Source: a virus. Taken from it: a DNA stretch of 56,732 nucleotides. The notes below the pieces were generated by a model, which made no database searches, was not told where the DNA came from, and saw nothing but the letters and a program-made list of their open reading frames with translations. The position numbers were made by a program, and so were the translations under genes. Positions 9,485 through 46,931 of the stretch are shown piece after piece; within the stretch, counting starts at the first letter, position 1; the number at the start of each line of letters is the position of its first letter. The stretch covers positions 1-56,732 of IMG/VR virus record IMGVR_UViG_3300037262_000027; one strand, 5' to 3'.

Positions 9485-11140
9485 ATGAGCGCTCTAGCAG
9501 AGCTCGTGGAGAACGCCGACGCTGCCCAGAAACGGCGTGACGAGTTGGTCACGCGCCGCGACACGGCAGAGGCGGAGTTCCGCACCATCGTCGACGGCCT
9601 CCGCCAGGAGTCCGGCGAGGACCGCGACCCAGACACAAAAGAGGCAGCTCGCTGCGAGGAGCTGCGCTCGGAGATCGACGAGGCCGACGAAGCCCTCGCC
9701 GAGGTCCGCAAGGAACGCAAGGCGATCCGCCGTCGCATCAAGGAGGAGAAGGAGAACGCCGACGACGCGAGCCTGATCGCAGAGGCCCGTGAGCGGATTG
9801 CATCGGTGGACTCGATCGCCGACGTGACAGTGACGCAGGGCGAGCGGCCGATCTACGGGGTAGCGCCCGACGGTCTGCGCTCGCCGAACTCCTTCTACAT
9901 GGATCTCGTGCTCCGCACGAAAGCGCGGTTCACGGGCGAGAACGACCACGGGGCGAACAAGCGCCTGAACGAATGGGCGCATCAGGTCGAGAAGGAGCAC
10001 GCCCACGGCACGCCGTTCGGCAAAGCCGCGCTCCCGCAGATCCGCGAAACGTATCGAGGCGAGGACCCGATCGGCACGAAGGAGCGGATGAAGGAATTCG
10101 AGGAGCGCGGACGGCTCGGGATCGAGGACAAGTCATCGCTCGAGGCGCGTGCGACCGCGATCGGCACCGACGGTGGTGCCTCGGCCACGGCCCCCGGTGA
10201 AGGCTCGGCGTTCGTTACGCCGGTCTTCGACGTCGGCAAGTACGCTCCGTGGCGCGAATACGGGCGGGCGTTCGCTGACGCTTGCGCGAAAGAACAGCTC
10301 CCGCCGTACGGGATGTATGTCTACATCCCGCACGTCACCGGAGGCGCAGAAGTCACGGGCGTCACCGAGTCCTCCGGCTCGACGACGATCGCCGACCTGG
10401 CACCGACGGCGGGCTACCTCTCGGGAGCGTTGAAAACGTTCGCCGGGCAGGTCGTCGTTTCGCAGCAGCTGCTCGATCGGGCTGGCCCGAACTTCGCGTT
10501 CGACCGGCTCATCTTCGACCAGATGATGCGCAACTACGCGCTCAACTTCGACACCTACGTGCTCGAAGTGGCGCTGACCGAAGCGAAAGTGAACAACTGG
10601 AAAGGCAACGCTGGCACGTTCGTGTTCCTCGAAAAGGAAAAGGCCGGCGGCTTCTACGGGCAGGTTGCCAAAGCGAAGGCCGACGTCCGCACGACTGCGG
10701 GCACGGTCCTGAACCCGACGCACCTGTTCGTTCGTCCGACGCGGTGGGAGTACCTGGCGGCATTCGCCGGCTCGGAATTCCGCCCGCTGATCGCGCCGAA
10801 CTACGCGGGTCCGTTCAACTCGGCCGCGAGTGGCTCGGCCGACGGTGACGAGGGCATCGAGGGAGCGACGGGTTACAAACTCGCCGGTCTGCCGGTGTTC
10901 ACCGACCAGAACATCCCCGACCAGGGAACCACGACCAACGACCAGGCGCTCGTCGGATGTCTGGACGAGACGTGGGTGTTCGAGGGGGCAATCACGCCTC
11001 GGACGATTCCACAGACCAAAGCCAACACGCTCCAGGTAATTCTACAACAGTATAGTTATGCGACCGTCATCAAGAGGTACGCAGAAAGCGTCGTAGCGAT
11101 CAATGGCGAAGGAATGAAAGCGGTTTCCTACACCAACTAG
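9485..11140 (+). CDS. major capsid protein 1 (HK97 fold, with delta domain)
   Basis: 551 aa. Residues 1-~115 are a charged coiled coil with many Glu/Lys/Arg, i.e. the HK97-type delta/scaffold domain removed by the prohead protease. The capsid body starts with GTDGGASATAPGEGSAFVTP at about 226, then PPYGMYVYIP, QVVVSQQLLDRAG, and LKFDTY-like NFDTYVLEVAL. It ends in the P-domain/A-domain strands LVGCLDETWVFEG and TIKRYAESVVAI. Clearly homologous to the second capsid gene at 11305, but longer and the only one with the delta domain. Ribosome site AAAGGCAGG at about 9471-9479. Confidence 0.93.
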   Translation: MSALAELVENADAAQKRRDELVTRRDTAEAEFRTIVDGLRQESGEDRDPDTKEAARCEELRSEIDEADEALAEVRKERKAIRRRIKEEKENADDASLIAEARERIASVDSIADVTVTQGERPIYGVAPDGLRSPNSFYMDLVLRTKARFTGENDHGANKRLNEWAHQVEKEHAHGTPFGKAALPQIRETYRGEDPIGTKERMKEFEERGRLGIEDKSSLEARATAIGTDGGASATAPGEGSAFVTPVFDVGKYAPWREYGRAFADACAKEQLPPYGMYVYIPHVTGGAEVTGVTESSGSTTIADLAPTAGYLSGALKTFAGQVVVSQQLLDRAGPNFAFDRLIFDQMMRNYALNFDTYVLEVALTEAKVNNWKGNAGTFVFLEKEKAGGFYGQVAKAKADVRTTAGTVLNPTHLFVRPTRWEYLAAFAGSEFRPLIAPNYAGPFNSAASGSADGDEGIEGATGYKLAGLPVFTDQNIPDQGTTTNDQALVGCLDETWVFEGAITPRTIPQTKANTLQVILQQYSYATVIKRYAESVVAINGEGMKAVSYTN

Positions 11141-11179: not shown

Positions 11180-11251
11180 TGCGGCGTAGTGGAAGGGTCA
11201 CCATCCGGGCCTCATAAGCCTGGGGACTGGGTTCGAGTCCCAGCGCCGCCA
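11180..11251 (+). tRNA. tRNA with CAT anticodon (Met or Ile2)
   Basis: Cloverleaf by eye: acceptor 11180-11186 with 11244-11250 (six pairs; the first position T/C is mismatched), D stem 11189-11192/11201-11204, anticodon stem 11206-11210/11218-11222 with CAT at 11213-11215, T stem 11227-11231/11239-11243 with loop TTCGAGT, discriminator A11251, no encoded CCA. The 1-72 mismatch recalls initiator tRNA. However, the anticodon stem is not GGG/CCC and D-stem position 11 is T, so an elongator Met or lysidine-type Ile tRNA is likelier. It lies between the two capsid genes. Confidence 0.85.
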
Positions 11252-11304: not shown

Positions 11305-12618
11305 ATGACGGACGTGGTGTTCACGCCTGAGCAGCAGGCCGAGGTGAACCGGATCATCGGCGAGCGCTTGGCGCGCGACCGGCAGGTGCGCGTGACCCAT
11401 GAGCCGAGGGTCTACGGCCTGCACTCCCAGAACTCCTACTACTCAGACGTGGTGCTCGCCGCTCAGCCGGACAACCCCGGCACCGGGTCCGCGCAGAAGC
11501 GACTCGGAAAGTACGAACGCGAGCTCGGCGTCGAGATGGACCGGGGCTCGGCGGAGGGCCGGCGGGCCGAACGGATCATCCGCGCCAGACTGCGCACCGC
11601 CGATGAGCTGGAACACGAGACGCGCGCGACTCAAGTGCTCAACGAGATCAGGGGCTTTGGCACCGACGGAGGCATCTCCGCCTCATCGCCGGGTGAAGCC
11701 GCGCCGTTCGTCTCCCCGTTTTTCCTCATGGACCAGTGGGCGCCCTTCCGAGGCTCGGCGCGGTCATTCACCGACCAGTGCATCCTGTTGCCGCTCCCGG
11801 CCTACGGCATGAAAATCTACGTGCCCTACTTCTCGGGCACCGACAAAACGGGCGAACAGACCGAGGGCGGCTCAGTGGCGGAAACCGAGCCCACGACCGA
11901 ACTCGAAGCCTCGCCGACGGTGGCCACGATCACCGGGCAGGTCACCGGCTCCCAGCAGCTCCACGACCGCGGCGGCACAGGCGGAGGCAGCACCGACGTC
12001 ATCATCGGCAAGCAGCTCCAGGAGCAGCTCGACGCCTCGATCGACCTGTATGTTCTGAACCAGGCGATCACCCAGGGCTCGGCGATCTCCGGCGAAGCGA
12101 CCTTCTCCATCGAAGGGCTCTACAAGGATCTGACGAAAGCCCGCGAGAAAATCACCGACACGGCCGGGACGCGCCTGCGCCCGACGCACCTGTTCACGAC
12201 CTCGGACATCTACAACTTCGCGACCGAGCAGCTCGATGAAGACAAGCGGCCGATCGTGGTCCCGCAGTTCGTCCCGGGCTTCCCCCTGGCCGCCAACGCC
12301 GACGACCACGACGAAAGCAATCGGCTCCCCAAGTGGGCAAGGTTCACCGGGACCGTCCTGCCCGCCGGCCTGCTCTGGTTCACCGACGACAACATCCCGC
12401 TCGAAGGAACCACCACGCACACCCGCCTGCTCGTCTCGACGCCCGGCGACGCGATCATCGTGATGGAGGATGAGCCGGTCCTGACGGTGTTCCTGGAAAC
12501 GAAAGCCGACACCCTGCGGACGATCCTCAACCTGCGGACGTATGCTGCGGCGGTGACGCGACACTCCGCCGGCACGTCGGTCATCGCCGGAGCCGGATAC
12601 ACCACCACTCAGAAATGA
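11305..12618 (+). CDS. major capsid protein 2 (HK97 fold, no delta domain)
   Basis: 437 aa, GGAGG 6 nt before the ATG. Shares the capsid core with the upstream gene block by block: YGLHSQNSYYSDVVL versus YGVAPDGLRSPNSFYMDLVL, GTDGGISASSPGEAAPFVSP at about 118, PAYGMKIYVP, and TGSQQLHDRGG. It lacks the ~100-residue coiled-coil delta domain and starts with a short helical FTPEQQAEVNRIIGERLA. The two differ at most positions, so this is an old duplication, not a recent one. It may build a mixed lattice, pentamers or an elongated head. Confidence 0.9.
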   Translation: MTDVVFTPEQQAEVNRIIGERLARDRQVRVTHEPRVYGLHSQNSYYSDVVLAAQPDNPGTGSAQKRLGKYERELGVEMDRGSAEGRRAERIIRARLRTADELEHETRATQVLNEIRGFGTDGGISASSPGEAAPFVSPFFLMDQWAPFRGSARSFTDQCILLPLPAYGMKIYVPYFSGTDKTGEQTEGGSVAETEPTTELEASPTVATITGQVTGSQQLHDRGGTGGGSTDVIIGKQLQEQLDASIDLYVLNQAITQGSAISGEATFSIEGLYKDLTKAREKITDTAGTRLRPTHLFTTSDIYNFATEQLDEDKRPIVVPQFVPGFPLAANADDHDESNRLPKWARFTGTVLPAGLLWFTDDNIPLEGTTTHTRLLVSTPGDAIIVMEDEPVLTVFLETKADTLRTILNLRTYAAAVTRHSAGTSVIAGAGYTTTQK

Positions 12619-12863
12619 CCCCGCAGCCCCTACCGCCCGAGCAGATCAGGACCCCGAGAGGCATCGGGATCAATGAGGGAGAGGGCGGGGCGCGGGCGAG
12701 AAGGTGGACTCCGGACGCGACGGGGCTCTACTGCTTGCGCTGTCGGCAGGTCACGTCGGCTCACGTGGGGGTGCGCTGCCCACCCGCGAAGATGCTCCGC
12801 CGGTTTGTGAATCGTGGAGGTCAACTCGTGGAGGTCAGCTCGATAGTGCGGGAGACACGGTGA
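12615..12863 (+). CDS. small Cys-containing hypothetical protein
   Basis: 82 aa, ATGA overlap with capsid 2. Contains GLYCLRCRQVTSAHVGVRC, a CxxC plus a later Cys as in a small zinc ribbon. First gene of the accessory cassette. No function assignable. Confidence 0.65.
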   Translation: MTPQPLPPEQIRTPRGIGINEGEGGARARRWTPDATGLYCLRCRQVTSAHVGVRCPPAKMLRRFVNRGGQLVEVSSIVRETR

Positions 12864-13027
12864 ACGCGATGCTGCCCGTCGGCGAGACGCCCATCCTTGC
12901 CCAGCCCGATGTCTGCTCCGGCTGCCATGAGCGGCTCACGTTTGAGGAGGAGAAGGTCTGCGTTCGCTGGCCGACGGTCGATGTGCCGATGCGGGTCTAC
13001 CACCCGGCCTGCGCTCCGCCCGAGTGA
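12860..13027 (+). CDS. small zinc-binding hypothetical protein
   Basis: 55 aa from GTG 12860, GTGA overlap with the previous stop; the frame is open further upstream but coupling fixes the start. DVCSGCHERL followed by VYHPAC gives a CxxC...HxxC zinc site of LIM/treble-clef-like spacing. Role unknown; one of several Cys-rich micro-proteins in this region. Confidence 0.65.
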   Translation: MNAMLPVGETPILAQPDVCSGCHERLTFEEEKVCVRWPTVDVPMRVYHPACAPPE

Positions 13028-13506
13028 CGATCATCCTCGCTTCGCACCTGCCGGGCGCCGGGCACTTCGAGTCCGAGCGCTTCATGGTCGATCCGATCGA
13101 GTGCTCAGAGCCCGAGGACTACTGGCGCGGCGTCGCCGAGTGGTGGGACAGCTACGACGTGCTCATCAACGTCGAGCACGACATGCAGGTCTCAGACGAC
13201 CTGATCGGAGCCCTGCTCGACTGCCCCGAGCCGTTATGCACATACGCATATTGGCTCGGCCCCTCCTCCGGCGGCCCCCACTGGGCTCATCGCACCGGCA
13301 GACAGCCCCCGTGTGGAGGAGTCTGGATCGAGGAGGGCGATGAGTGGGCTGACTTCGGGGGAATCGGGTTCTGCAAGATTGCCCCGGAGGTCAGGGTCCG
13401 GGCGTTGCCTGAGCAGACGTGGCAGTTCGTGGACATCGCGGTGTTCGCCTCCGTGCAGCGGCAGGTTCACGTCCACTGGCCCGCCGTGCGCCATGATCAC
13501 GTCTAG
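13024..13506 (+). CDS. glycosyltransferase-like protein, short GT-A type (copy 1)
   Basis: 160 aa from GTG 13024 (GTGA). The key segment LINVEHDMQVSDDL is a nucleotide-sugar transferase-like strand-acid-turn, with Glu-His-Asp in the DxD place. It is followed by LLDCPEPLCTYAYW and WADFGGIGFCKIAPEVR. The same blueprint (VExD..V..D.L..L..C..P.C.F.Y) recurs at 14123 and 22732, so this is a three-member family. Small GT-like enzymes of this kind are common in phage glycan cassettes. Donor and acceptor unknown; catalytic role inferred from the motif. Confidence 0.7.
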   Translation: MTIILASHLPGAGHFESERFMVDPIECSEPEDYWRGVAEWWDSYDVLINVEHDMQVSDDLIGALLDCPEPLCTYAYWLGPSSGGPHWAHRTGRQPPCGGVWIEEGDEWADFGGIGFCKIAPEVRVRALPEQTWQFVDIAVFASVQRQVHVHWPAVRHDHV

Positions 13507-14126
13507 TGGAGCTGGCGCACTTCTACCACTGCTTCACCGGAGGCTCCTGGACCGAGCCCGTCCTAGAGCACGTAGACGCACTGGTCGAGGCTGACTTCCG
13601 CTCCCCCGTCTATCTCGGGCTCGTGGGAGCCGAGCTGTGGCGCGGGGCAGCGTCGGATGTCTTTGAGCCGCTGCTGGACGTGCGCGTGGCCGTCGAGGCC
13701 GACTCGGGCTTCGAGCAGGTCACGCTCGCGGCCGTCCGCCGGTATGCGATGGAGCACGACGGCGCGGTGTGTTACGCCCACACCAAGGGCGCCGCAGACG
13801 TGAGCGACTTCCGGGCGAAATGGCGGCGGTCGATGACTCGGCTGCTGATCTCGGACTGGCGAGGGAACCTCGCCCACCTTGAGGAGTTCGACGCCGTCGG
13901 CTCCCACTGGCTCACGCCGGAGCACTTCCCCGGATTCGAGTCCGAGTTCGGGGAGGGCATCCCGTTCTTCGGCGGCAACTTCTGGATGGCCCGGTGTGAC
14001 TACCTGCGGGGGCTGCCGGAGCCCTCGGAGCGGTCGCGGTTCGATGCGGAGCGGTGGATTGGGTTGGGGAACCCGCGCGTGCATGACCTGAACCCCGGCT
14101 GGCCAGCGGCTAACTTGTTCGTGTGA
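13506..14126 (+). CDS. glycosyltransferase-like protein (rhamnan/capsule type)
   Basis: 206 aa from GTG 13506, sharing one base with the preceding TAG. Contains CYAHTKGAADVSDF...WRRSMTRLLI and later FFGGNFWMARCDYLRGLP. The pairing of an HTKG block with a GNFWMAR..YL block is what I know from glycan-synthesis proteins related to RgpF/capsule GT families. Probably acts with the neighbouring transferases on one glycan. No transmembrane segment, so cytoplasmic. Confidence 0.65.
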   Translation: MELAHFYHCFTGGSWTEPVLEHVDALVEADFRSPVYLGLVGAELWRGAASDVFEPLLDVRVAVEADSGFEQVTLAAVRRYAMEHDGAVCYAHTKGAADVSDFRAKWRRSMTRLLISDWRGNLAHLEEFDAVGSHWLTPEHFPGFESEFGEGIPFFGGNFWMARCDYLRGLPEPSERSRFDAERWIGLGNPRVHDLNPGWPAANLFV

Positions 14127-14650
14127 GGGGCCATGAGACGCCGGTTGCGCTCCCCTACGTCCCTCCCCTACGCCCCGAAGTAGCAGACGCCCTCGCAGGC
14201 TGGGACGTGGCGTTCGTGGACGTCTCCGGCTCGGATACGGCTTACTGGGAGCTGCTGTCGCAGCTCTGGCGGAAGGGTGTCGGCTTCATCGTCGTGGAGC
14301 AGGATGTGGTCGTCCGCCCCGACTCGCTCAGCGAGCTTGAGGAGTGCCACCGCCCGTGGTGCTCCTTCCAGGTCCCCTACGTGGGCAGAGTCTATGCGGG
14401 GCTCTCGTGCGCGAAGTTCTCGGCCGCGCTGATCGGCAGATACCCGATGGCTCTGGATCGGATCGGCAAGCGAAGCGACGCCGACCATCCCCCGGCCCAC
14501 TGGTGCCGACTTGATAGCTGGCTACAGTCCCTCTTGAACCACGGAGGCGAGGAAATGCACGTACACGGACCACCGCTTGAGCATCTGAGGGACGGGTCAG
14601 AGCCGGAGAGTCCGTGGCAGGTCGGGCCGGCGCATGGGTGCTGGCACTGA
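14123..14650 (+). CDS. glycosyltransferase-like protein, short GT-A type (copy 2)
   Basis: 175 aa from GTG 14123. Segment FIVVEQDVVVRPDSLSELEE, then CHRPWCSFQVPY, matches the acid-strand-Cys pattern of the genes at 13024 and 22732. VEQD takes the place of VEHD. It has a C-terminal His-rich VHGPPLEHL that could bind metal. Paralogue within the same cassette; sequence identity between copies is low outside the core. Confidence 0.7.
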   Translation: MRGHETPVALPYVPPLRPEVADALAGWDVAFVDVSGSDTAYWELLSQLWRKGVGFIVVEQDVVVRPDSLSELEECHRPWCSFQVPYVGRVYAGLSCAKFSAALIGRYPMALDRIGKRSDADHPPAHWCRLDSWLQSLLNHGGEEMHVHGPPLEHLRDGSEPESPWQVGPAHGCWH

Positions 14651-14835
14651 TGTTCGGACGCGACCCCAAGGCCCGCCACCAGGAGCAGATCCTCCGGGAC
14701 TTCCAACAGGCCACCCAAGCCCGGGAGCGGGCACGCGACCTCCTCTCAGAATCAGAAGCGATAGCGGCGAGGGCTGAGGCTCAGTATCAGTCGGCCAAGC
14801 TGGCGCTCCGGCGGGTGTCGGAGGGGTCGGTGTGA
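14650..14835 (+). CDS. small coiled-coil protein
   Basis: 61 aa from ATG 14650 (ATGA). Almost entirely helical and charged (QQATQARERARDLLSES), consistent with a single coiled coil. Function unknown. Confidence 0.6.
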   Translation: MFGRDPKARHQEQILRDFQQATQARERARDLLSESEAIAARAEAQYQSAKLALRRVSEGSV

Positions 14836-14838
14836 GGG

Positions 14839-15153
14839 ATGGGCGACGACGAGATCATCCACTTCGCCGGGCAGACGATGACCTTCGGCGCGGTGCGCCG
14901 ACAGCGATGCCTCTGGTGTGGCGCGCTGATCCAGGAGCATGATCTCGACCGCATAGCTATCAGCGACTCGGGCCGCCCGCCGGAGCGTCAGGGCAAGCCG
15001 TTGGAGCCCGACGAGATCGGGTCCTGGACCGGCCTTGTCGGCGTGAGCGGCACGAACCCGCGCATGTACCGCGCCGTCGACGACCCCGAGGACGGCAAGG
15101 CACCCGACCGCTCCTGCATGATGCTGATGCCCGAAGAGATCGGCGTGACGTGA
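14839..15153 (+). CDS. hypothetical protein with CxxC pair
   Basis: 104 aa. RCLWCGALIQEHD gives a single CxxC half of a zinc ribbon; the rest is polar, and a late RSCMMLMPEEIG could supply another Cys. Precedes the epimerase by a 4-nt overlap. No family recognised. Confidence 0.6.
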   Translation: MGDDEIIHFAGQTMTFGAVRRQRCLWCGALIQEHDLDRIAISDSGRPPERQGKPLEPDEIGSWTGLVGVSGTNPRMYRAVDDPEDGKAPDRSCMMLMPEEIGVT

Positions 15154-16058
15154 GAGTCCTCATCACCGGAAACCGAGGCTTCATAGGAGAACACCTCGCC
15201 CGCGAGCTCCTAGACCACGGCTACGAGGTAGAGGGCCACGACAAGGCAGACGGAGACCTCACCGAGCCCGGAGTCTTCGCCGCACACCTCGACGCCTCAG
15301 AACCCGACCTCGTGATCCACCTCGCAGCGCAGGTGGGCCGCCTGTTCGGCGAGCAGGACTTGGAGCACACGATCCGCTCCAACGTCACGATGACCGCCCT
15401 CGTGGCGCTCGCCTGCGGAGGCCGGGGAGTCCCGCTGCTGTACGCCTCATCCTCCGAGGTCTACGGCGACCAGGGCGACGCCGTATGCTTCGAGGATGGA
15501 CCACTGAGCCCTCCGCACAACGCATACGGGCTCTCGAAGCTCCACGGCGAGCAGTTCTGCCAGCTCTACGCGCCCGAGGACCTGCGGATCGTTCGGCTGT
15601 CGATGCCGTACGGGCCCGGCGCCCCTCCCGGAGTCGGCCGGCGCGCGCTCGACACGTTCCTGTGGCAGGCGATCCACGGCAAGCCGATCACGGTGCATGC
15701 GGGAGCCGAGCGCTCATGGTGTTGGATCGGCGATTGTGTTTCGGGGATAAGGGCGGTCCTAGACGGACCGCCGGGCGTCTACAACGTCGGGCGGGATGAC
15801 TGCCCCGTGTCGATGCAGGCCCTCGCCGAGAAATGCTGCGAGCTGGCCGACGCGCCCATTTCCCTGATCGACGTCGTCCCCGCACCGGAGCGCCAGACCA
15901 TCGTCAAGCGCCTCTCCACCACAAAGCTCCAGCTCCTCGGGTGGGAACCGACGGTCGAGCTTGAGGAGGGGCTGCCGCAGGTGTTGGAGTGGGTCCGGCG
16001 GTTCGACGCGGAGGGCCGAATGGTCGAGCACGTCGGGAGTTACGGCGGCTCGGAGTGA
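15150..16058 (+). CDS. NAD-dependent epimerase/dehydratase (extended SDR)
   Basis: 302 aa. The N-terminal Rossmann motif is TGNRGFIG (residues 6-13), with a VIHLAAQVGR strand, then YASSSEVYG with the catalytic Ser region and NAYGLSKLHGEQ with the YxxxK pair. The RIVRLSMPYGPG segment and a GVYNVGRDD substrate-domain strand are typical of UDP/dTDP-sugar epimerases, 4,6-dehydratases and reductases. Full length for the family. It would make or modify the activated sugar used by the adjacent transferases. Exact substrate unknown. Confidence 0.9.
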   Translation: MRVLITGNRGFIGEHLARELLDHGYEVEGHDKADGDLTEPGVFAAHLDASEPDLVIHLAAQVGRLFGEQDLEHTIRSNVTMTALVALACGGRGVPLLYASSSEVYGDQGDAVCFEDGPLSPPHNAYGLSKLHGEQFCQLYAPEDLRIVRLSMPYGPGAPPGVGRRALDTFLWQAIHGKPITVHAGAERSWCWIGDCVSGIRAVLDGPPGVYNVGRDDCPVSMQALAEKCCELADAPISLIDVVPAPERQTIVKRLSTTKLQLLGWEPTVELEEGLPQVLEWVRRFDAEGRMVEHVGSYGGSE

Positions 16059-16279
16059 AGGTCAAGATTGTCAGCGACGGAACACCGCATGGCACCCGGA
16101 TCACGGACGAGACCGGCAACCCAATTGAATATGTGGACAGCATCGACTGGGAAATGAGGATGGACCGCTTGGCTACGGCCACCGTGCGATTCGTCGCGAT
16201 CCCCGTCGAGGTCGAGGCAGAGCTGCGCGGCTACCGCGAGACGATCGACCGCTACGTTGAGCCGGACCCCGAGCCGTGA
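16055..16279 (+). CDS. small hypothetical protein
   Basis: 74 aa from GTG 16055 (GTGA). VKIVSDGTPHGTRITDETGNP, then RMDRLATATVRFVAIPVEVE, reads as a small beta structure. Such a pattern appears in phage proteins of unknown role. Coupled to epimerase and hydrolase. Confidence 0.6.
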   Translation: MKVKIVSDGTPHGTRITDETGNPIEYVDSIDWEMRMDRLATATVRFVAIPVEVEAELRGYRETIDRYVEPDPEP

Positions 16280-16824
16280 AGGTCATCTGCATCGGCGACT
16301 CCTGCACCTACGGCCAAGGCGTCCGCTCCTCCGAGGCATGGCCCGCGGTCCTCGAACGCCTCACCGGCCACGACGTAAGGAACGCCGGGGTGTGCGGAGA
16401 CACGACGCGGTTGGGGTTGGAGCGGTTCTTCCGCGACGTGGCGATGCACCGGCCGGATGCGGTGGTGCTGCAATTCGGGCACAACGACGCGAACCGCTGG
16501 GGTACGGACTTCGGCGTTGAGCGAGTGGGCCTCGACTCATTCACGACCAACGTCGGCGAGCTGATCGACCGCTGCCATGCGATCCAGGCGCAAGTCATCG
16601 TGCTGCGTCCACACGAACCCACGAGGTCGTACGGGAGGGAGACAGACCCCGGCTACGAGGAGCGCGTCATGCTCTACGCCATCGCCCTCAAGCAAACCGT
16701 GGGTGACCACCTCTCCCACTGCGCCCCGGTCGACTCCCTCCTCGATGACGGCTACGGCGTCCACCCGGACCCGGCGATGCACCAGCGGTATGCGGGGCTG
16801 GTGGCGCGGGTGCTCGGGGAATGA
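16276..16824 (+). CDS. SGNH/GDSL hydrolase
   Basis: 182 aa from GTG 16276. Block I is CIGDSCTYG with nucleophile Ser9; block II Gly is in NAGVCGDTT; block III is FGHNDAN with the oxyanion Asn; block V is DDGYGVHPDP with the Asp-His pair. The SGNH set is complete. In a glycan cassette the likely role is O-acetyl/acyl transfer to or removal from a sugar. No signal peptide, so it acts in the cytoplasm. Confidence 0.88.
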   Translation: MKVICIGDSCTYGQGVRSSEAWPAVLERLTGHDVRNAGVCGDTTRLGLERFFRDVAMHRPDAVVLQFGHNDANRWGTDFGVERVGLDSFTTNVGELIDRCHAIQAQVIVLRPHEPTRSYGRETDPGYEERVMLYAIALKQTVGDHLSHCAPVDSLLDDGYGVHPDPAMHQRYAGLVARVLGE

Positions 16825-16976
16825 TCGTCATACCTGCTGATCGCGAACACCTGATCCGGTCGGGCCGCTGGCCCCAGCGCATCGTCTGCGCTCTCATTGC
16901 GCACCGCCTTCGCATTGGCCCTAGGCCCCGTCTGCGCCTCTACTGTGAGCGCTGCGGCGCGGAGTGGCGGTCGTGA
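16821..16976 (+). CDS. small protein ending in a CxxC motif
   Basis: 51 aa, ATGA overlap with the hydrolase stop. Basic (RPRLRLYCERCGAEWRS at the C-terminus), the half zinc-ribbon end CERCG seen in other micro-proteins here. Too short for common ORF cut-offs but perfectly placed in the overlap chain. Confidence 0.6.
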   Translation: MIVIPADREHLIRSGRWPQRIVCALIAHRLRIGPRPRLRLYCERCGAEWRS

Positions 16977-17089
16977 CCCGCCTACTCCGCCTCACCGGCC
17001 TCCCCTGCCTCATTGGCTTCCACGAGGACCGGCGCTGGATCGGCTCCTATGTGCGCTGTGTGCGCTGTCAGCGGGTGGAGCGGCGGTGA
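16973..17089 (+). CDS. 38-aa Cys-containing micro-protein
   Basis: Starts at GTG 16973 overlapping the previous TGA and stops at 17087-17089, overlapping the next GTG. Sequence includes GLPCLIGFHEDRRWIG, then VRCVRCQRVERR: a Cys and a CxxC near the basic end. The two exact couplings argue it is translated. Function unknown. Confidence 0.5.
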   Translation: MTRLLRLTGLPCLIGFHEDRRWIGSYVRCVRCQRVERR

Positions 17090-17565
17090 GGACCAACGGC
17101 GTCAGGTTCGCCCATCCGGCTCGAATCAGCGAGACGGCGATCCTAGAGGGCGACATCGAGCTTGGCCCCAACGCCTCCGTCGGCTGGTACTCGATCATCC
17201 GCGGTAAGGTCCGAGCGGGCCGGAACCTCCGCCTCGGCGCGCACTCCTCGATCGAGGGCGAGGTCACCCTCGGCGACGACGTGACCATCCGCGGCAAGTG
17301 CGAGATCCCGAACGCCATCCTCGGCGACCGGGTCTCGATCTACGCCGGGGTGATCTTCTACGACACCCCCCACCCGCCGGACGGCCCGAACCTCCCCCCC
17401 GTGATCGAGGACGACGTGGTGATCTGCTGCAACGCCGCAGTGCTCGGAGGCTGTACGGTCGGGAAGGGCTCGCTAATCGGGGCCCGCGTGTTCGTCACCG
17501 AGGATGTGCCGCCGGGGTCGCTCGTGACCGCCGTCAGCGCCTACAAGGTGAGGCCCCGCCGATGA
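17086..17565 (+). CDS. hexapeptide-repeat acyltransferase
   Basis: 159 aa from GTG 17086. Consists of left-handed parallel beta-helix hexads: ILEGDIELGPNASVG, LRLGAHSSIEGEVTLGDD, VTIRGKCEIPNAILGD, then VVICCNAAVLGGCTVGKG and SLIGARVFVTEDVPPGSLV. This is the WbbJ/NeuD-like trimeric acyl-CoA sugar acetyltransferase fold. In context it would acetylate an amino- or hydroxy-sugar of the cassette. Length normal. Confidence 0.88.
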   Translation: MRTNGVRFAHPARISETAILEGDIELGPNASVGWYSIIRGKVRAGRNLRLGAHSSIEGEVTLGDDVTIRGKCEIPNAILGDRVSIYAGVIFYDTPHPPDGPNLPPVIEDDVVICCNAAVLGGCTVGKGSLIGARVFVTEDVPPGSLVTAVSAYKVRPRR

Positions 17566-18140
17566 AGCTCTCGATCGTGCTACCCACGATCCCCGGCCGC
17601 GAGGCAGAGGTTGCGCGGACCATCGAGATATACGAGTACCGGACCCACGTCCCGATCGAGTGGATCATCGAGCGGGGCCACGACAACTGCGGCGCCGCCT
17701 GGAACGCCGGAGCCCCCAAGGCCACCGGCGAGGTCCTGCACATGGGCGCCGACGACATCGAGCCCGAGACAGACCAATGGCTCCCCGCCGCGCTGTGGGC
17801 CTTCCACAACGGCCACGTCCCCCTGGGCTACGTCCGCGAGGATGAGATCGGGACCTTCGGCCGGGACTTCGCCCGCGTCGTGATCTGCCGGCGCGAGTGG
17901 TGGGAGCCGGTGATCGAGCAGCAGTACTGGTCGGACAACCACTTCGATGACCTGATGCGCGCGGCCGGGCACACGCCCGAGATCGCCGAGGGCTTCGACT
18001 TCTACCACCGCAAGAGCATGGTCGGGCGAGACGAGTCACGGATGGAGCGCGAACGGGAGGCGTACCGGGCGCTCCGGGAGGTAGCATCCGAGCATGGGTC
18101 TGAAGCCGGGAACAGTGCCAGCGGTGGCACCGGCACCTAA
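17562..18140 (+). CDS. glycosyltransferase, GT2-like
   Basis: 192 aa from ATG 17562 (ATGA). MKLSIVLPTIPGRE is a GT-A first strand. NCGAAWNAGAPKATGEVLHMGADD carries the nucleotide-binding loop and the metal-binding acidic pair (GADDIEP). EWWEPVIEQQYWSDNHFDD and GFDFYHRKS form the acceptor side. Compact but near-complete GT2-like domain. The last ~15 residues overlap the start of the next small ORF in another frame. Confidence 0.82.
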   Translation: MKLSIVLPTIPGREAEVARTIEIYEYRTHVPIEWIIERGHDNCGAAWNAGAPKATGEVLHMGADDIEPETDQWLPAALWAFHNGHVPLGYVREDEIGTFGRDFARVVICRREWWEPVIEQQYWSDNHFDDLMRAAGHTPEIAEGFDFYHRKSMVGRDESRMEREREAYRALREVASEHGSEAGNSASGGTGT

Positions 18141-18207
18141 GCGGGAGCCGATCGTGATGCCGGAGCCCGCTGAGCCGATCAAGAAGCCCGAGCCGGTCCC
18201 GGCGTGA
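18094..18207 (+). CDS. 37-aa Pro/Lys-rich micro-protein
   Basis: ATG 18094 to TGA 18205-18207, overlapping the next GTG (GTGA). Repeats of the type PAPKREP, PEPAEP, KKPEPVP make an extended polyproline-like chain. Overlaps the end of the glycosyltransferase by 47 nt. Real only if coupling is taken as evidence. Confidence 0.4.
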   Translation: MGLKPGTVPAVAPAPKREPIVMPEPAEPIKKPEPVPA

Positions 18208-18998
18208 CCGCGCAGCTTCAAGCCCCGGCGATCGGGTATCGCGGGTTTCACTGGGACGGCAGCGGGCCGCTGAAGTCGACTGGCGTCGAATCGTGCTGGC
18301 CGATCATGCGCGACCCCCAGCACGCGCGCTGCATCGCCACGACCGACGCCCGGCACCCGGCTCCGCAGGAGGACTGCACCTGCGGACTCCACGCCTACTC
18401 GACGCCGGAGGCCGTCACGGGGCAGGTTGGAGCCGTCGTGCTCGGCTACGACAGCCTGATCGTGCACCCCGACGGCTGGCGGGCAGCGACGGTGGGGATC
18501 GCGGCGCTGGTGTGCATCCCACCCGACCGCGACACCGTGAGGCTCGTCTTCCGGCTCAATGGGCCAACCGAGGCCCACTCGCTTGAGGCCCCGAGCCGCG
18601 ACGCCCTCTCGATGCTGGCCGACGCCTACGGCGTCCCGCTGGTAGACGACTGGGAGCACGGCACCGCGCTCGCCCAGGAGCAGGGCGCGCAGCCGGTCCC
18701 CGAAATCCTGCACGCGGAAGCGGAGGCGTGGGCCAAGCCGACCTTCCTAGAGGCGGGCATCACGATGGCGTTCACCGCCAGCACCGCGAACCTTGCCGCG
18801 GCGATGCAACGGATGTCCGAGGCGATCAGCGCGGCCAGCGTCAGCATCAACGACATGCGCGCCTTCAGCTTCGCGTGGCCGGAACCCGCCAAGCCCGCGC
18901 CCAAGCGCAGAGAACGCCGCTTCGACACGCCCCGCCAGCGCCATGCGGCCTTCAACGCCGAGCTGGCCCGCCGCAGTCGCCCGCGCGCCCTCCGGTGA
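18204..18998 (+). CDS. tandem paralogue A: CxCG-motif protein of unknown function
   Basis: 264 aa from GTG 18204. N-terminal half: IGYRGFHWDGSGPLKS, CTCGLHAYSTPE (CxCGxxA) and AVVLGYDSLIVHPDGWRA. This CxCG-A-Y plus 'VHPDGWRA' combination also occurs in small actinobacterial and phage proteins of unknown function. The C-terminal ~100 residues (AGITMAFTASTANLAAAMQR and a basic tail) are unlike the paralogue at 18995. Cytoplasmic by sequence. Confidence 0.75.
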   Translation: MTAQLQAPAIGYRGFHWDGSGPLKSTGVESCWPIMRDPQHARCIATTDARHPAPQEDCTCGLHAYSTPEAVTGQVGAVVLGYDSLIVHPDGWRAATVGIAALVCIPPDRDTVRLVFRLNGPTEAHSLEAPSRDALSMLADAYGVPLVDDWEHGTALAQEQGAQPVPEILHAEAEAWAKPTFLEAGITMAFTASTANLAAAMQRMSEAISAASVSINDMRAFSFAWPEPAKPAPKRRERRFDTPRQRHAAFNAELARRSRPRALR

Positions 18999-19735
18999 CC
19001 GCGCAGCTTTCAGCCCCGGCGATCGGCTACCGGGCCTTCAAGTGGGACGGGAGCGGGCCACTGAAATCCGTCGGGGTCAGCTCCGAGTGGCCAATCTCGC
19101 GCGAGCCGCAGCAGGCGATCTGTAACAACGGTCGCGCCCACGCCGCACCGCAGGAGAGTTGCTCCTGCGGCTTCTATGCCCACTCGCGTTCAGCCGACGT
19201 GCCGAAGCTGCCTCCCGGTGTCGGGGCCGTGATCTTGGGCTACGGCAATCTCATCATCCACCCGGACGGGTGGCGCGCGCAGTTCGCGGAGCTTGTCGCG
19301 CTCGTCCCATACGCGCGCACCGTTGGCCTCAGCGACCCGAGCGCCGCCGCGATCGAGATGTGCGCCGAGCAGTATGGCGTGCGCGTGTTGAGCTGGGAGG
19401 ACGCGGCGTCGGTCGCCCGCGAGCTTGGAGCCGAGCCCGTTCCGGAAATCCTGCACGCCGAAGCCGAGGGCTGGCAGCTCGGCCCCGAGAAACGCGAACC
19501 GCTGTTCCCGGACGGAATGGCCGCAAGCTACGGCGACGCTGAACAGCGCGTGCGAGAAGCGCTCCCCTGGCTGGAGCGCCACATGATCGGCCGCATGGAC
19601 ATACAGATGGTGTCGGCCCCGATGGCCTACTACGTGGCCGCGGCGCCGATGACGTTCTCGGTCGGCTACGAGCTGCGGCTCAGCATCGTGCACCCCGAAC
19701 TCCGCGCCGAGGTCGAGATCACGCTGCGCATCTGA
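18995..19735 (+). CDS. tandem paralogue B: CxCG-motif protein of unknown function
   Basis: 246 aa from GTG 18995 (GTGA overlap with paralogue A). The first ~60 residues nearly repeat A: VTAQLSAPAIGYRAFKWDG versus MTAQLQAPAIGYRGFHWDG, CSCGFYAHS for CTCGLHAYS, LIIHPDGWRA for LIVHPDGWRA, and later VPEILHAEAE in both. The C-terminus is different (DIQMVSAPMAYYVAAAPM, beta-rich). A clear tandem duplication with replaced C-terminal modules. Confidence 0.75.
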   Translation: MTAQLSAPAIGYRAFKWDGSGPLKSVGVSSEWPISREPQQAICNNGRAHAAPQESCSCGFYAHSRSADVPKLPPGVGAVILGYGNLIIHPDGWRAQFAELVALVPYARTVGLSDPSAAAIEMCAEQYGVRVLSWEDAASVARELGAEPVPEILHAEAEGWQLGPEKREPLFPDGMAASYGDAEQRVREALPWLERHMIGRMDIQMVSAPMAYYVAAAPMTFSVGYELRLSIVHPELRAEVEITLRI

Positions 19736-19750
19736 TGCGGAGGTCCCTCC

Positions 19751-20416
19751 ATGCTCGACGTGCCGGTGTTCATCACCTGCCGCGACCGCCTGAAAGACCT
19801 CCGCCGCCTAGTCGAGTGGCTTGAGCTAGCCGGGCACCGCCGCATCACCTTCCTCGACAACGCCTCCTCCTACACGCCCCTCTTGCGCTACATGGCGGCG
19901 AGCAAGCACGAGGTCCGCTGGCTCGGAGGGAACCTCGGCTCCCGGGCATTGTGGGCAGCCGAGATGGTCCCCGATGAGCCGTTCGTCCTGACCGACCCGG
20001 ACATCATCCCGCTGGACTCCTGCCCGCTCGACGCCGTGGCCCACCTTCAACGCCTCCTCGACGATCATCCCGGCTACCCCAAGGCCGGGCTCGGGCTCTA
20101 CCTGGAGGACACGCCCGACTTCCCGAGCAAGGACTGGGAGCGCTCGCTTCACTCCCGAGAGATCGCGCCGGGGGCGTTCGACTCCCTCATCGACACGACC
20201 TTCGCCCTGTACCGCCCCGGCTCCGAGTTCGCCTACGAGGCCATCCGCACCGGGCAACCCTACGTTGCCCGCCATTCGAGCTGGTACGTGACCGAGCCCG
20301 ATGCTGAGGACCGGTACTACTTGGACCGGGCAGCGACCGGCGTGACGGGATCGAGCTGGAAGGAAGGGCTAGCCGAACCACGGCAGGCGGCGAAGCAGGC
20401 GGACGTACTCCACTAG
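19751..20416 (+). CDS. glycosyltransferase (GT-A, GT2-like)
   Basis: 221 aa, GGAGG 5 nt before the ATG region (19739-19744). VPVFITCRDRLKDLRRLVEWL is the GT2 first strand-helix. ITFLDNASSYTPLLRYM is the sugar-nucleotide loop. FVLTDPDIIP contains the metal-binding DPD (DxD). Lacks the long C-terminal helices of processive enzymes, so probably transfers single sugars. Last gene of the main cassette; its end overlaps a minus-strand gene. Confidence 0.85.
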   Translation: MLDVPVFITCRDRLKDLRRLVEWLELAGHRRITFLDNASSYTPLLRYMAASKHEVRWLGGNLGSRALWAAEMVPDEPFVLTDPDIIPLDSCPLDAVAHLQRLLDDHPGYPKAGLGLYLEDTPDFPSKDWERSLHSREIAPGAFDSLIDTTFALYRPGSEFAYEAIRTGQPYVARHSSWYVTEPDAEDRYYLDRAATGVTGSSWKEGLAEPRQAAKQADVLH

Positions 20417-20581: not shown

Positions 20582-21565
20582 ATCGCTTTCACCCGACGCA
20601 AAATCACGCACACCTTCAAGGGGCCATCAGGCGAAGCTGCCAGCGGGTCCGCAGAGTTCACGCTCAGCGAACGCATGAGCCAAGTTGGCGAAAGCATCCT
20701 TCCCGAACCCGTCACGGCCGCCTTCAACAGCGCAGGGGAAATGTCGGTCGAACTCCCCTCCAACCGGGATGCCGCGACGACGCCGGGCAACACTCAGTAC
20801 CGGCTCGACCTGCGCGTGGTGGGCCAGGACCCGCAGACCTTCTGGATCACCGTCCCCACCGGCCCCGGCACGACCGACCTCTACTCGCTGCTTCCCCTCT
20901 CAGACCCCGGCAACGCCTACACCTACGACGAGACCCCGCGCTGGTCCACCTTCGTAGATGTGGACCAGGACGTGAAGCCTTGGCTCCAGTTTGACTCGGT
21001 CACCGAATCAAGCGAAGAGCAGAAGCTCAAGATGGTCACCGACTCCGTCTGCTGGGACTTCCAGGACTACCTCGGGCGCCCGCTCGGCCCGGCCATCTTC
21101 GCCCGGCGCTTCTCGGTGTGGAGCGGCAACACCCTCATGCTCCCCTACTACCCGATCGTCGGCTCGCCGATCCGGGTGGCGGAGTTCTGGGGCGTCAACG
21201 GCGAACACCTGCTCGAAGAACAGACCCCCGAGCACCAAGGCTCGAACGAAATGTACACAGTGGACCCGCAGCGGGGCTACATCGTGCGCTCGTTCCAGGG
21301 CCTCATCCCCCGCCCCTACTTCCCCGGCCTGCGCAACATCGAGGTCGTGTGGACGGCGGGCTATGACCCGCTCCCGCCACCGATCCGAGACGCGGCGCTG
21401 AAACAGATCGCCCACGAGTGGCGCAAGGAGCAGCAGGCGTCGCGCAGCGAGGCCCCGCGACCGGCCGGCGGCGACCAGGGGGACTTCGACGGGGGCCTCT
21501 TGCCCGACCTGCTCCCCGAGGTGAAACGGAAGCTGGGGCCCTTCGTCCAAGTAGGAATCGGCTAG
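20582..21565 (+). CDS. head-tail connector fused to an N-terminal tail/adaptor domain
   Basis: 327 aa if started at ATC 20582, preceded by GGAGGT at 20571-20576 with 5-nt spacing; the first ATG is 20675. The segment from 20585 (AFTRRKITHTFKGPSGEAAS) matches the usual start of this actinophage domain, so the rare start is favoured. Residues ~1-120 are beta-rich. From ~145 on lies an HK97 gp6-like connector: DSVCWDFQDYLGRP, LPYYPIVGSPIRV, VVWTAGYDPLPPPIRDA. It would form the ring below the portal. Confidence 0.8.
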   Translation: MAFTRRKITHTFKGPSGEAASGSAEFTLSERMSQVGESILPEPVTAAFNSAGEMSVELPSNRDAATTPGNTQYRLDLRVVGQDPQTFWITVPTGPGTTDLYSLLPLSDPGNAYTYDETPRWSTFVDVDQDVKPWLQFDSVTESSEEQKLKMVTDSVCWDFQDYLGRPLGPAIFARRFSVWSGNTLMLPYYPIVGSPIRVAEFWGVNGEHLLEEQTPEHQGSNEMYTVDPQRGYIVRSFQGLIPRPYFPGLRNIEVVWTAGYDPLPPPIRDAALKQIAHEWRKEQQASRSEAPRPAGGDQGDFDGGLLPDLLPEVKRKLGPFVQVGIG

Positions 21566-22731: not shown

Positions 22732-23241
22732 GTGCACATAGTCCTCGCCTCGCACCTTGAGGGCGAGGGGCACTTCCGCTCAGCGAGGCACGCTGTCAAG
22801 CCCGCGCTCTGCCGCGGCGACGCCGACTACTACTACGCGCTCGCCGCCGTGTGGGAGTCGGACCTCACGATCGTCAACGTCGAGCACGACATCGAGGTCT
22901 CAGATCGGCACTTGGACGAGCTGCTGGCCTGCCCGCACCCGCTCTGCAGCTTCGCCTATCAGTGTCACTTCGCCTCAACCGGCCAAGCCGAGAGCATCAT
23001 CGCCGCAGGCACCGGGGACTGGGCACACCACCTGCAGGGCGGCGAGGAGTGGGCCGACTGGTCGGCCATCGGGCTGGTGAAGATCACCCCCGAGGCCCGA
23101 ACCGGCCCGCTCGCCTATCGCTCATGGCAGGACCTCGAGCGCTCGGTCCACAACGCCGTGACGCGCCCGTGGCACATGCATGGAAACGGGAGCCACCCCG
23201 GCGATAAGAGCGGCCACGTCGCTCATCACCACTGGGCCTGA
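22732..23241 (+). CDS. glycosyltransferase-like protein, short GT-A type (copy 3)
   Basis: 169 aa from GTG 22732. Close relative of 13024: IVLASHLEGEGHF versus IILASHLPGAGHF, TIVNVEHDIEVSD versus LINVEHDMQVSD, ACPHPLCSFAYQ versus DCPEPLCTYAYW, and GEEWADWSAIGLVKITPEAR at the end. Located far from the main cassette, beside the tail-tube genes, suggesting a virion-protein substrate or an insertional copy. Ends in a His-rich tail (GHVAHHHWA). Confidence 0.75.
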   Translation: MHIVLASHLEGEGHFRSARHAVKPALCRGDADYYYALAAVWESDLTIVNVEHDIEVSDRHLDELLACPHPLCSFAYQCHFASTGQAESIIAAGTGDWAHHLQGGEEWADWSAIGLVKITPEARTGPLAYRSWQDLERSVHNAVTRPWHMHGNGSHPGDKSGHVAHHHWA

Positions 23242-23255
23242 CAAGGAGGACCTAC

Positions 23256-23489
23256 ATGCTGCTTTTCAACATCAGCCCCTCACCGGAGATCGTCGGCGGC
23301 GCGCACAACCCCGCCATCTCCCCGGGCGACGGCTACGACTTCGATGAGGAGACGGCCGAGTACCTGTTGAACACAGGGCGCTGGTCGGAGCAGGACCCGC
23401 GGGCGGGCATAGCGGCCGAGGTTCGGTTCAAGCAGGACCGTGACACACAAACCCCGGCGGTGCCGGATAACCAAGGAGCAGCAGAATGA
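23256..23489 (+). CDS. small protein before the tail tube
   Basis: 77 aa; AAGGAGG lies 7 nt upstream. Sequence LLFNISPSPEIVGGAHNPAI then YDFDEETAEYLLNTGRW reads as a short beta hairpin plus a helix. In many actinophages a small protein of this size precedes the major tail protein. Its stop overlaps the next start (ATGA). Function unknown. Confidence 0.65.
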   Translation: MLLFNISPSPEIVGGAHNPAISPGDGYDFDEETAEYLLNTGRWSEQDPRAGIAAEVRFKQDRDTQTPAVPDNQGAAE

Positions 23490-24559
23490 CTGGACCGATC
23501 ACCGCCGGCTCGGGGCTTGGCGCATGGGCCACCGCCGCGCGGCACAAAGAATACGTCGAAGCGTTCAACACCTCCAACCCGAGGACGCTCTACTTCAAGA
23601 CGTTCAAGCCGACCTGGGACCCCCACCCGGTACAGGGTGGGCCGTATCTCGCGGGCGGACGGATTGCCGACATCGGCTCGGCGCACATCCTGATGGGCCT
23701 CGACGCGAAAGCCACGCTCACGGGCGACGTGATGACGACCGCCCAGGCGCTGCTTCTCGTGAGCGCATTCGGCTCGAACGGCACCCTCAAAGAGTCCGGG
23801 ACCGGCGCCGCCTATCAGCTGTTCACGGGAACGGGGACGAAAGGGATCAAACTCGAAGCCCCCGAGTCCCACGACTCGGCCAAAGAATCCACGTTCCTCG
23901 ACATCGAAGTCGGGCTGCCATACACGAACGCGGAAAACGTTGGCTGGCGCTACACCGCAGGCGTGGTCCAGAAGGCCGAGTTCGTCTTCGACCGCATGAA
24001 CCTGTGCTCCTACAGCTACGACATCGACTTCCGCCACGTCGCAGCCAACCTCAGCCCAACCCTCCCGACCTTCACCACGAATGGCGTGCCGTTCGCGATG
24101 AACGAAGGCAGCTCGGCGTTCAAGATCGGCACCCCCGGCGGAGCGGCGGCGCTCGCTGGAGTCCGGAAGATGACGGTCACCCTGGAGCACAAGATGGCGA
24201 CCGACCGCTGGTACCTCGGGGAAGCCGAAAAGAGCCTCCCGGTCTCGAACGGGCTGGTGGACATCGGCGTCTCCTGCGAATGCGACAACACGGAAGCCGC
24301 GAAGAACGTGCTCGAAACGTTCCTGAAAAACGAAGCCTCCGAAATCATCGCCGAAGCGACCGGAGCGAACATCGGCTCCTCGGGCAAACCGAACCTGTTC
24401 CTGTTCAAGATGCCCAACGTGTTCATCGACTCGGGCGCCGAGTTCCCGATCGACGGGCCGGACATTCTGAAAACGACGTTCGCCGCGAAAGCGACCATCA
24501 ACACGACGAACGAACCGGTCGTCTCCGCAGAACTAACCACAAGTGATACGACGTTCTGA
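23486..24559 (+). CDS. major tail (tube) protein
   Basis: 357 aa. Placed directly before the frameshifting chaperones, the standard place for the tail tube gene. Beta-rich, with FKPTWDPHPVQGGPYLAGGRIADIG, KATLTGDVMTTAQALLLVSAF and VQKAEFVFDRMNLCSYSYDID, and a C-terminal domain AEFPIDGPDILKTTFAAKA. Larger than the minimal ~200 aa tube protein, so it probably has an added C-terminal domain. Assignment by position and fold style. Confidence 0.75.
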   Translation: MTGPITAGSGLGAWATAARHKEYVEAFNTSNPRTLYFKTFKPTWDPHPVQGGPYLAGGRIADIGSAHILMGLDAKATLTGDVMTTAQALLLVSAFGSNGTLKESGTGAAYQLFTGTGTKGIKLEAPESHDSAKESTFLDIEVGLPYTNAENVGWRYTAGVVQKAEFVFDRMNLCSYSYDIDFRHVAANLSPTLPTFTTNGVPFAMNEGSSAFKIGTPGGAAALAGVRKMTVTLEHKMATDRWYLGEAEKSLPVSNGLVDIGVSCECDNTEAAKNVLETFLKNEASEIIAEATGANIGSSGKPNLFLFKMPNVFIDSGAEFPIDGPDILKTTFAAKATINTTNEPVVSAELTTSDTTF

Positions 24560-46682: not shown

Positions 46683-46931
46683 ATGACGCCAGCTATCTAC
46701 ATCGGCAGTCCGTGGTCGCGGTCGTGGTCGTGGTCGCGGTCGTGGTCGCGGTCGCGGTCGCGGTCGTGGTCGCGGTCGCGGTCGCGGTCGTGGTCGCGGT
46801 CGTGGTCGCGGTCGTGGTCGCGGTCGTGGTCGCGGTCGCGGTCGCGGTCGTGGTCGCGGTCGTGGTCGCGGTCGTGGTCGCGGTCGCGGTCGTGGTCGCG
46901 GTCGCGGTCGTGGTCGTGGTCGCGGTCGTGA
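46683..46931 (+). CDS. Trp-Ser/Arg-Ser hexamer-repeat protein
   Basis: 82 aa from ATG 46683. Ten ordinary residues (MTPAIYIGSP) are followed by 36 dipeptides, each WS or RS, encoded by TGGTCG or CGGTCG, then TGA 46929-46931 overlapping the next ATG (TGATG). The frame stays open through the array, and both ends fit the operon's coupling style, so it is probably translated. Product highly basic and aromatic; might bind RNA/DNA or membranes. Repeat number could vary without frame loss. The other frame (Val-Ala) is open too but lacks a natural start. Confidence 0.5.
   Translation: MTPAIYIGSPWSRSWSWSRSWSRSRSRSWSRSRSRSWSRSWSRSWSRSWSRSRSRSWSRSWSRSWSRSRSWSRSRSWSWSRS
46713..46928 (+). repeat. hexanucleotide array (T/C)GGTCG x36
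   Basis: Thirty-six uninterrupted 6-bp units, differing only in the first base T or C. No spacers, so not CRISPR. Confidence 0.95.

What the first reader, a model, noticed from the sequence alone, without database searches (positions are those of the whole stretch)
12615..20416. A sugar-synthesis and glycosylation cassette inside the structural operon
Between the second capsid gene and the head-tail connector lie about twenty coupled genes. They include several GT-like proteins (13024, 13506, 14123, 17562, 19751), an SDR epimerase/dehydratase, an SGNH hydrolase, a hexapeptide acyltransferase, two tandem unknown paralogues and small Cys-rich proteins. Another GT-like copy (22732) sits beside the tail tube gene. 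Enzymes to make, acylate and transfer a sugar, expressed with virion proteins, suggest glycosylation of capsid or tail protein. Virion glycosylation is reported for some actinobacteriophages; this gene set looks more elaborate than a single transferase.
Basis: partly seen in the sequence, partly recalled or inferred. Interest (0 to 1): 0.8.

Follow-up and report, generated by a model that had tools for sequence, protein, structure and literature searches.

The report
Phage sugar-coat genes inside structural operon
This soil phage carries, wedged between its capsid and connector genes, a tight set of enzymes that probably build and attach a sugar chain to its own particle; related phages keep the same core transferases but swap the sugar-modifying genes in the middle, rather as bacteria swap surface-antigen genes.

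Summary
12615-20416 contains 17 tightly coupled + strand genes (not twenty) between a second capsid-like gene and a head-tail adaptor. SDR, SGNH and hexapeptide enzymes are confirmed by profile and motif. 13024, 14123 and 22732 are paralogues. 13024 and 13506, which match nothing in Pfam, PHROGs or NCBIfam, model as GT-A glycosyltransferases; 17562 and 19751 have GT-A-like motifs only. Related IMG/VR phages keep 13024, 13506, 14123 and 19751 in order in the same slot. Four of them replace the SDR/SGNH/hexapeptide middle with other GT2s, an FkbM methyltransferase and, in most, another hexapeptide enzyme; DNA homology to these stops at the end of gene 14123. More distant relatives split the transferases between the capsid and tail-tube sites, and several capsid relatives have an empty slot. 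One relative is a prophage in a Solirubrobacterales genome. The best reading is virion glycosylation. Precedents: cluster J mycobacteriophages fill the same slot with unrelated glycosyltransferases (published 2013), and cluster O phages, reported to glycosylate capsid and tail tube, carry GTs in this operon. New here are the transferase families, the wider enzyme set and the cargo exchange. No glycan or acceptor is shown.

The parts
9485..11140 (+). major capsid-like gene (cap1)
   Evidence: Pfam Phage_capsid E 2.9e-6; homologous to Mycobacterium phage major capsids
11305..12618 (+). second capsid-like paralogue (cap2)
   Evidence: about 31-36% identical to cap1-type proteins of relatives; no Pfam hit of its own
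12615..12863 (+). small Cys-containing protein, conserved next to 13024
   Evidence: 52-75% identity in relatives
12869..13027 (+). small Cys-containing protein
   Evidence: 51% in L008
13024..13506 (+). GT-A-like glycosyltransferase, family A (EHD motif), next to the capsid gene in most relatives
   Evidence: AlphaFold model pLDDT 78; VIA Z 10.4 mannosylglycerate synthase, 10.3 TarP; no Pfam/PHROG/NCBIfam hit
13506..14126 (+). GT-A-fold glycosyltransferase-like protein, family B
   Evidence: model pLDDT 95; Foldseek 2.5e-5 to GtrB, 4e-5 SpsA; VIA Z 12.9
14123..14650 (+). paralogue of 13024, family C (EQD motif)
   Evidence: blastp 3e-4 to 13024 and 2e-6 to 22732; alignment A1
14650..14835 (+). 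small predicted coiled protein, unknown
   Evidence: 61% in L003, 45% in L005
14839..15153 (+). small Cys-containing protein, unknown
   Evidence: no hits
15150..16058 (+). extended SDR nucleotide-sugar epimerase/dehydratase
   Evidence: Epimerase 1.5e-39, phrog_540 1.4e-53; GNRGFIG, SSE, YGLSK motifs; 80% in L003, 63% in L052
16055..16279 (+). small protein, weak DUF1382 match below cut-off
16276..16824 (+). SGNH/GDSL esterase or acyltransferase
   Evidence: Lipase_GDSL_2 5e-25; GDS, GHND, GVHP motifs
16821..16976 (+). small Cys-containing protein
   Evidence: ORF, overlapping start
16964..17089 (+). small Cys-containing ORF (uncertain)
   Evidence: GC3-based ORF pick
17086..17565 (+). left-handed beta-helix (hexapeptide) acyltransferase
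   Evidence: Hexapep 8e-18; sub-cut-off similarity to several acyltransferases including NeuD/PglB type
17562..18140 (+). putative GT2-type glycosyltransferase, family D
   Evidence: Pfam GT2 E 0.07, below cut-off; DDI motif; 51% homologue next to SDR and H in L052
18204..18998 (+). tandem paralogue 1, unknown
18995..19735 (+). tandem paralogue 2, unknown
   Evidence: 52% to 18204; one 55% copy in L008
19751..20416 (+). putative glycosyltransferase, family H (DPD motif); conserved right-hand end of the cassette
   Evidence: 59-77% in relatives at the same place; linked to family B in many viral contigs; not fold-tested
20675..21565 (+). head-tail adaptor
   Evidence: phrog_442 9.6e-13
22732..23241 (+). 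GT family A paralogue beside the tail-tube gene
   Evidence: 39% to 13024, 5e-35; 76% homologue at the same place in L008 only
23486..24559 (+). putative tail tube protein
   Evidence: position; conserved between adaptor genes and tape measure; no significant family hit

Best explanation
The cassette most likely makes and attaches a modified oligosaccharide to the phage's own virion protein(s) during late gene expression. Proposed steps: a host NDP-sugar is converted by the SDR (enzyme type shown, substrate inferred); family A/I transferases prime the capsid (13024) and possibly the tail tube (22732) (fold or paralogy shown, acceptor inferred); B, C, D and H extend the chain (order inferred); the hexapeptide enzyme acylates and the SGNH enzyme trims or moves acyl groups (inferred). 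The conserved transferase core with an exchangeable middle would let related phages carry different glycan coats (exchange shown, glycan change inferred).
For: 17 tightly packed genes, mostly overlapping, continuous with capsid genes. SDR, SGNH and LbH enzymes with motifs intact. A and B model as GT-A. A, B, C, H keep order between cap2 and adaptor at 59-81% identity. In distant relatives the same families sit at the capsid site, the tail-tube site or both: L052 cap1-A-adaptor-g22215-SDR-D-H-B-C-tube; L040 cap1-A/I-SDR-H-adaptor-g22215-B-C-tube; L038 cap1-A-cap2. Capsid relatives: 16 distinct contigs with an A-family gene in the operon, 12 with capsid then connector and no GT profile hit between them. 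No hydrophobic segment typical of membrane proteins, no thymidylate synthase. Precedent: capsid and tail tube reported glycosylated in Che8, Corndog, Myrna (PMC12363180, PMC12619734, citing Freeman 2023); cluster O GTs lie between portal and protease; cluster J GTs lie in the same slot.
Against: No glycan, acceptor or activity is shown. Capsid and tube C-termini are not richer in Ser/Thr in GT-bearing phages. A's model is only moderate (pLDDT 78, Foldseek E above 1e-3). B has no clear DxD. H, C and D were not folded. Some cassette genes remain unexplained (18204, 18995, small proteins).
Confidence: 0.75

Rival explanations
1. The cassette glycosylates or acylates a host envelope glycan (receptor masking or seroconversion), and its place in the structural operon is incidental.
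For: Sugar enzymes with acyltransferase and esterase are typical of surface-polysaccharide modification; a relative is an integrated prophage; best fold neighbours include GtrB, TarP and TarS.
Against: No membrane-spanning GtrA/GtrB/OafA-like protein in the cassette; genes are coupled to late virion genes and stay at capsid/tube sites in relatives.
Confidence: 0.12
2. The cassette glycosylates phage DNA as an anti-restriction modification.
For: Phage GTs can hypermodify DNA (Pyle 2024, cited in PMC12619734); the window has a helicase-DNA methylase gene.
Against: No thymidylate synthase-type gene in the window and none of the proteins scanned looks like a modified-base synthase; the genome may be incomplete and not all base-modification families were searched; the genes sit in the virion operon, not with replication genes.
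Confidence: 0.05
3. It is a set of unrelated inserted genes (morons), some perhaps not enzymes any more.
For: Many non-GT small genes, tandem paralogues and homing endonucleases are interspersed in relatives.
Against: Four GT-like genes keep their order in several contigs and cargo genes are consistently sugar-related in both variants.
Confidence: 0.08

Closest known systems
Cluster J (Omegavirus) mycobacteriophage insertion between capsid and head-tail connector genes (Pope et al. 2013, PMC3706429; phage Pound)
   Same: Same slot; five GTs plus methyltransferase, kinase and UDP-glucose dehydrogenase annotations; distantly homologous capsid, portal, terminase
   Different: Core GT families A, B, C, H not detected there; only a generic GT2 cargo profile matches; no SDR epimerase, SGNH or hexapeptide enzyme annotated in Pound
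Cluster O / Corndog-type virion glycosylation (FoulBall; Freeman 2023 as cited in PMC11600133 and PMC12363180)
   Same: Several GTs and a sugar-modifying type enzyme within the structural operon; capsid and tail tube reported as acceptors
   Different: Genes lie between portal and protease; three GTs and an O-methyltransferase only; GTs not detectably homologous to families A-H
Chlorovirus/giant virus autonomous capsid glycosylation (PMC4691112)
   Same: Virus-encoded GTs glycosylate viral proteins without host secretory machinery
   Different: Eukaryotic viruses, unrelated gene sets
Bacterial O-antigen/capsule loci
   Same: Conserved flanks with exchangeable sugar-modifying genes (analogy)
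   Different: No flippase, polymerase or lipid-linked initiation enzyme in the cassette (none seen in profile searches or hydropathy)

Membership tests
Actinobacteriophage virion-glycosylation gene set | glycosyltransferase genes inside the virion structural operon | tested here: met
Actinobacteriophage virion-glycosylation gene set | glycan on capsid and/or tail tube protein | not testable with these tools
   needs mass spectrometry; proxy by Ser/Thr-rich tails negative
Actinobacteriophage virion-glycosylation gene set | same gene slot as cluster J (between capsid and connector) | tested here: met
   Pound genes 15-23 between capsid and adaptor; window genes between 12618 and 20675
Cluster J cassette by descent | homologous core GTs | tested here: not met
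   profiles of A, B, C, H find no significant match in Pound; only gtE3 (E 2.5e-5), a cargo GT2 of other relatives
GT-A fold glycosyltransferases | GT-A fold | tested here: met
   13506: Foldseek 2.5e-5, Z 12.9; 13024: Z 10.4 but Foldseek only 3e-3 and pLDDT 78
GT-A fold glycosyltransferases | acidic metal-binding motif (DxD-like) | tested here: inconclusive
   EHD/EQD/EHD in 13024/14123/22732, invariant E51 and D53 in alignment A1; DDI in 17562, DPD in 19751; not evident in 13506
Pfam GT2 (PF00535) | match above gathering score | tested here: not met
   best is 17562, 12.6-13.4 bits against a cut-off of 23.3
Extended SDR nucleotide-sugar enzymes | GxxGxxG, YxxxK and family profile | tested here: met
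   the exact reaction is not resolved
SGNH hydrolases | GDS, GxND and catalytic His blocks | tested here: met
Hexapeptide acyltransferases | left-handed beta-helix hexapeptide repeats | tested here: met
   Hexapep 8e-18; no NCBIfam equivalog cut-off reached
Phage DNA-glycosylation systems | thymidylate-synthase-type gene making the modified base | tested here: not met
   PF00303 absent from the window; other base-modification families not searched; record may be a fragment
gtrABC seroconversion clusters | membrane flippase and polyprenyl-phosphate transferase with TM helices | tested here: not met
   best 19-residue mean hydropathy below 1.6 in all 14 cassette proteins tested

The most novel reading that the evidence does not exclude
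The cassette is a virion 'serotype locus': phages of one lineage keep a transferase core fixed to the capsid gene and exchange the sugar-making and sugar-decorating middle by recombination at homologous flanks, so that near-identical particles carry different glycan coats in soil.
Probability: 0.35. Interest if true: 0.7.

Novelty: new variant of a known kind. Interest (0 to 1): 0.55.

Why it matters
Virion glycosylation has been reported for only a few mycobacteriophages, where it affects antibody recognition (per PMC12363180, citing Freeman 2023), a pressure absent in soil. A soil actinobacterial lineage that keeps a GT core beside its capsid gene and swaps sugar cargo suggests that the coat has an ecological role (adsorption, stability, predation or defence), and gives an ordered set of natural variants, including empty-slot relatives, to test it. 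It also supplies GT-like families with no Pfam, PHROG or NCBIfam match, one of them found in about 400 stretches of viral contigs.

Tried and rejected
C-terminal Ser/Thr enrichment of capsid/tube as an acceptor signature: no difference between GT+ and GT- phages. PDB sequence-profile search for families B and H: no relevant hit. Annotated phage collection: no DNA match and only weak protein matches for A-H in five records. Corndog and Omega RefSeq/GenBank accessions were not held; FoulBall and Pound were used instead. Freeman 2023 itself was not held, so its results are cited through other papers. Promoter scan uninformative. I considered that all GT calls might rest on memory alone; only A and B were tested by fold, as two structure jobs were allowed. 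The capsid-anchored census used a seed alignment that included some GT-bearing phages, so its proportions are not unbiased.

Full report
What is there. The window is a 56,732-base linear IMG/VR virus record, 66% GC. The late operon runs terminase, portal, protease, capsid, second capsid-like paralogue, the reported gene block, head-tail adaptor, putative tail tube, tape measure. The block (12615-20416) holds 17 genes on the + strand; most neighbours overlap by 1 or 4 bases, and only the joints before 18204 (63 bases) and after 19751 (258 bases) are wider than 20 bases.

What the genes are. Pfam and NCBIfam identify 15150 as an extended SDR nucleotide-sugar enzyme with GxxGxxG, SSE and YxxxK motifs, without resolving the exact reaction. 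16276 is an SGNH esterase/acyltransferase with the catalytic blocks present, and 17086-17565 is a hexapeptide acyltransferase. 13024, 13506, 14123, 18204, 18995 and 19751 match no Pfam, PHROG or NCBIfam family. 13024, 14123 and 22732 are paralogues sharing an acidic E-x-D motif; E51 and D53 are invariant in the 13-sequence alignment. AlphaFold models: 13506 has pLDDT 95 and matches GtrB, SpsA and chondroitin polymerase (Foldseek 2.5e-5 to 4e-5; VIA Z 12.9). 13024 has pLDDT 78, weak Foldseek matches (3e-3) to nucleotide-sugar Rossmann enzymes, but VIA Z about 10 to mannosylglycerate synthase, TarP and SpsA. So both look like GT-A proteins, 13506 more firmly. 17562 has only a sub-threshold GT2 match, and 19751 rests on motif and linkage.

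Relatives. Related IMG/VR phages keep families A, B, C and H in this order in the slot between second capsid and adaptor: records 3300014501_000003, 3300050135_000024 and 3300044797_000084 with both ends in view, 3300037146_000035 and 3300036892_000047 cut at the right end. The middle varies. The window and 3300037146 have SDR and SGNH. 3300050135, 3300044797 and 3300036892 have four further GT-like genes, an FkbM methyltransferase and another hexapeptide enzyme; 3300014501 has four GT-like genes and the FkbM enzyme. At DNA level the window's match to the second type stops at 14645, the end of gene 14123, and resumes at or near gene 19751 or the adaptor, while the match to 3300037146 continues through SDR and SGNH to 16814; L130/L029 also share the 18081-19735 region, with paralogues 18204/18995. 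Between 3300044797 and 3300036892 the cassette from B onward is about 90% identical over 5.2 kb, whereas gene A beside it is 77% and outside matches are about 72%. That pattern is exchange of a cargo block by recombination in conserved flanks.

Distant relatives keep the families but re-arrange them: L037 has only A and C after the capsids; L038 has A between the two capsids; L052 and L040 put A after the capsid and B and C before the tail tube; L134, L036 and L151 have A after the connector. Among capsid relatives found by a capsid alignment, 16 distinct contigs carry an A-family gene in the operon and 12 show capsid followed by connector without any of my GT profiles between them; the seed alignment contained some GT-bearing phages, so this is not an unbiased rate.

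Host. One relative (L128) lies in a 98-kb contig of a Solirubrobacterales MAG, flanked on the left by host genes (PQQ synthesis, pyruvate dehydrogenase and others) and on the right by an integrase-like gene and host genes (gene names here are my reading of the translations). A second capsid relative comes from an Acidimicrobiaceae MAG. So soil Actinobacteriota are the likely hosts; the window's own host is inferred only.

How it probably works. The simplest reading is that the enzymes glycosylate virion protein in the cytoplasm as particles assemble: they are late, coupled to capsid genes, without membrane segments, and they sit at capsid and tail-tube sites, the two proteins reported as glycosylated in Che8, Corndog and Myrna (PMC12363180, PMC12619734, PMC11600133, all citing Freeman et al. 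2023, which I could not read). DNA glycosylation is less likely: no thymidylate synthase, though I did not search all base-modification families and the record may be incomplete. Host-wall modification is not excluded. Which protein is the acceptor is unknown; a test for Ser/Thr-rich tails was negative.

What is known. Pope et al. 2013 (PMC3706429) described an insertion of 8-10 genes with several GTs and methyltransferases at exactly this slot in cluster J mycobacteriophages and did not know its role; phage Pound shows it, Bipper has the slot empty. Cluster O phage FoulBall has an O-methyltransferase and three GTs between portal and protease. The window's core GTs are not detectably homologous to these. 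The finding is therefore a new variant of a known kind: different GT families, a wider enzyme set (SDR, SGNH, hexapeptide), and swapping of the sugar cargo within one lineage, which I did not find described in the papers searched (9 of 10 searches, CC-licensed papers only).

Noticed in passing
11181-11250 (+): tRNA-Met (CAT) gene between the two capsid genes (ARAGORN; Rfam 48.4 bits); not found in eleven related loci scanned.
   Followed up: partly
9485-11140 and 11305-12618: Two paralogous HK97-type capsid genes in tandem; some relatives (L133, L138, L128) have only one detected.
   Followed up: no
21562-22185 (-): AP2/HNH-like protein on the opposite strand between adaptor and the next tail gene; several copies scattered in L010.
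   Followed up: no
L004:1980-5067, L135:9875-12160, L029:9178-10645: Capsid gene in three pieces (L004, L135) and adaptor gene in two (L029), suggesting introns or inteins as in cluster J phages.
   Followed up: no
25264-25990 (+): P-loop kinase-like ORF apparently split over two frames (25264-25674 and 25475-25990) between the putative tail chaperone and a tail gene; frameshift, programmed or error.
   Followed up: no
46712-47092 (+): ORF with a long Val/Ala run from GT/GC-rich simple repeat; may be non-coding repeat DNA.
   Followed up: no
49433-52063 (+): Helicase C-terminal domain fused to an N6/N4 DNA methylase (Pfam).
   Followed up: partly
IMG/VR contigs, e.g. L056-L124: Families B and H are often neighbours in many aquatic viral contigs at about 37% and 27-32% identity to the window proteins; 398 stretches encode a B relative.
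   Followed up: partly
L128 (JAFAYP010000573.1): Related prophage in a Solirubrobacterales MAG with host genes on both sides.
   Followed up: partly
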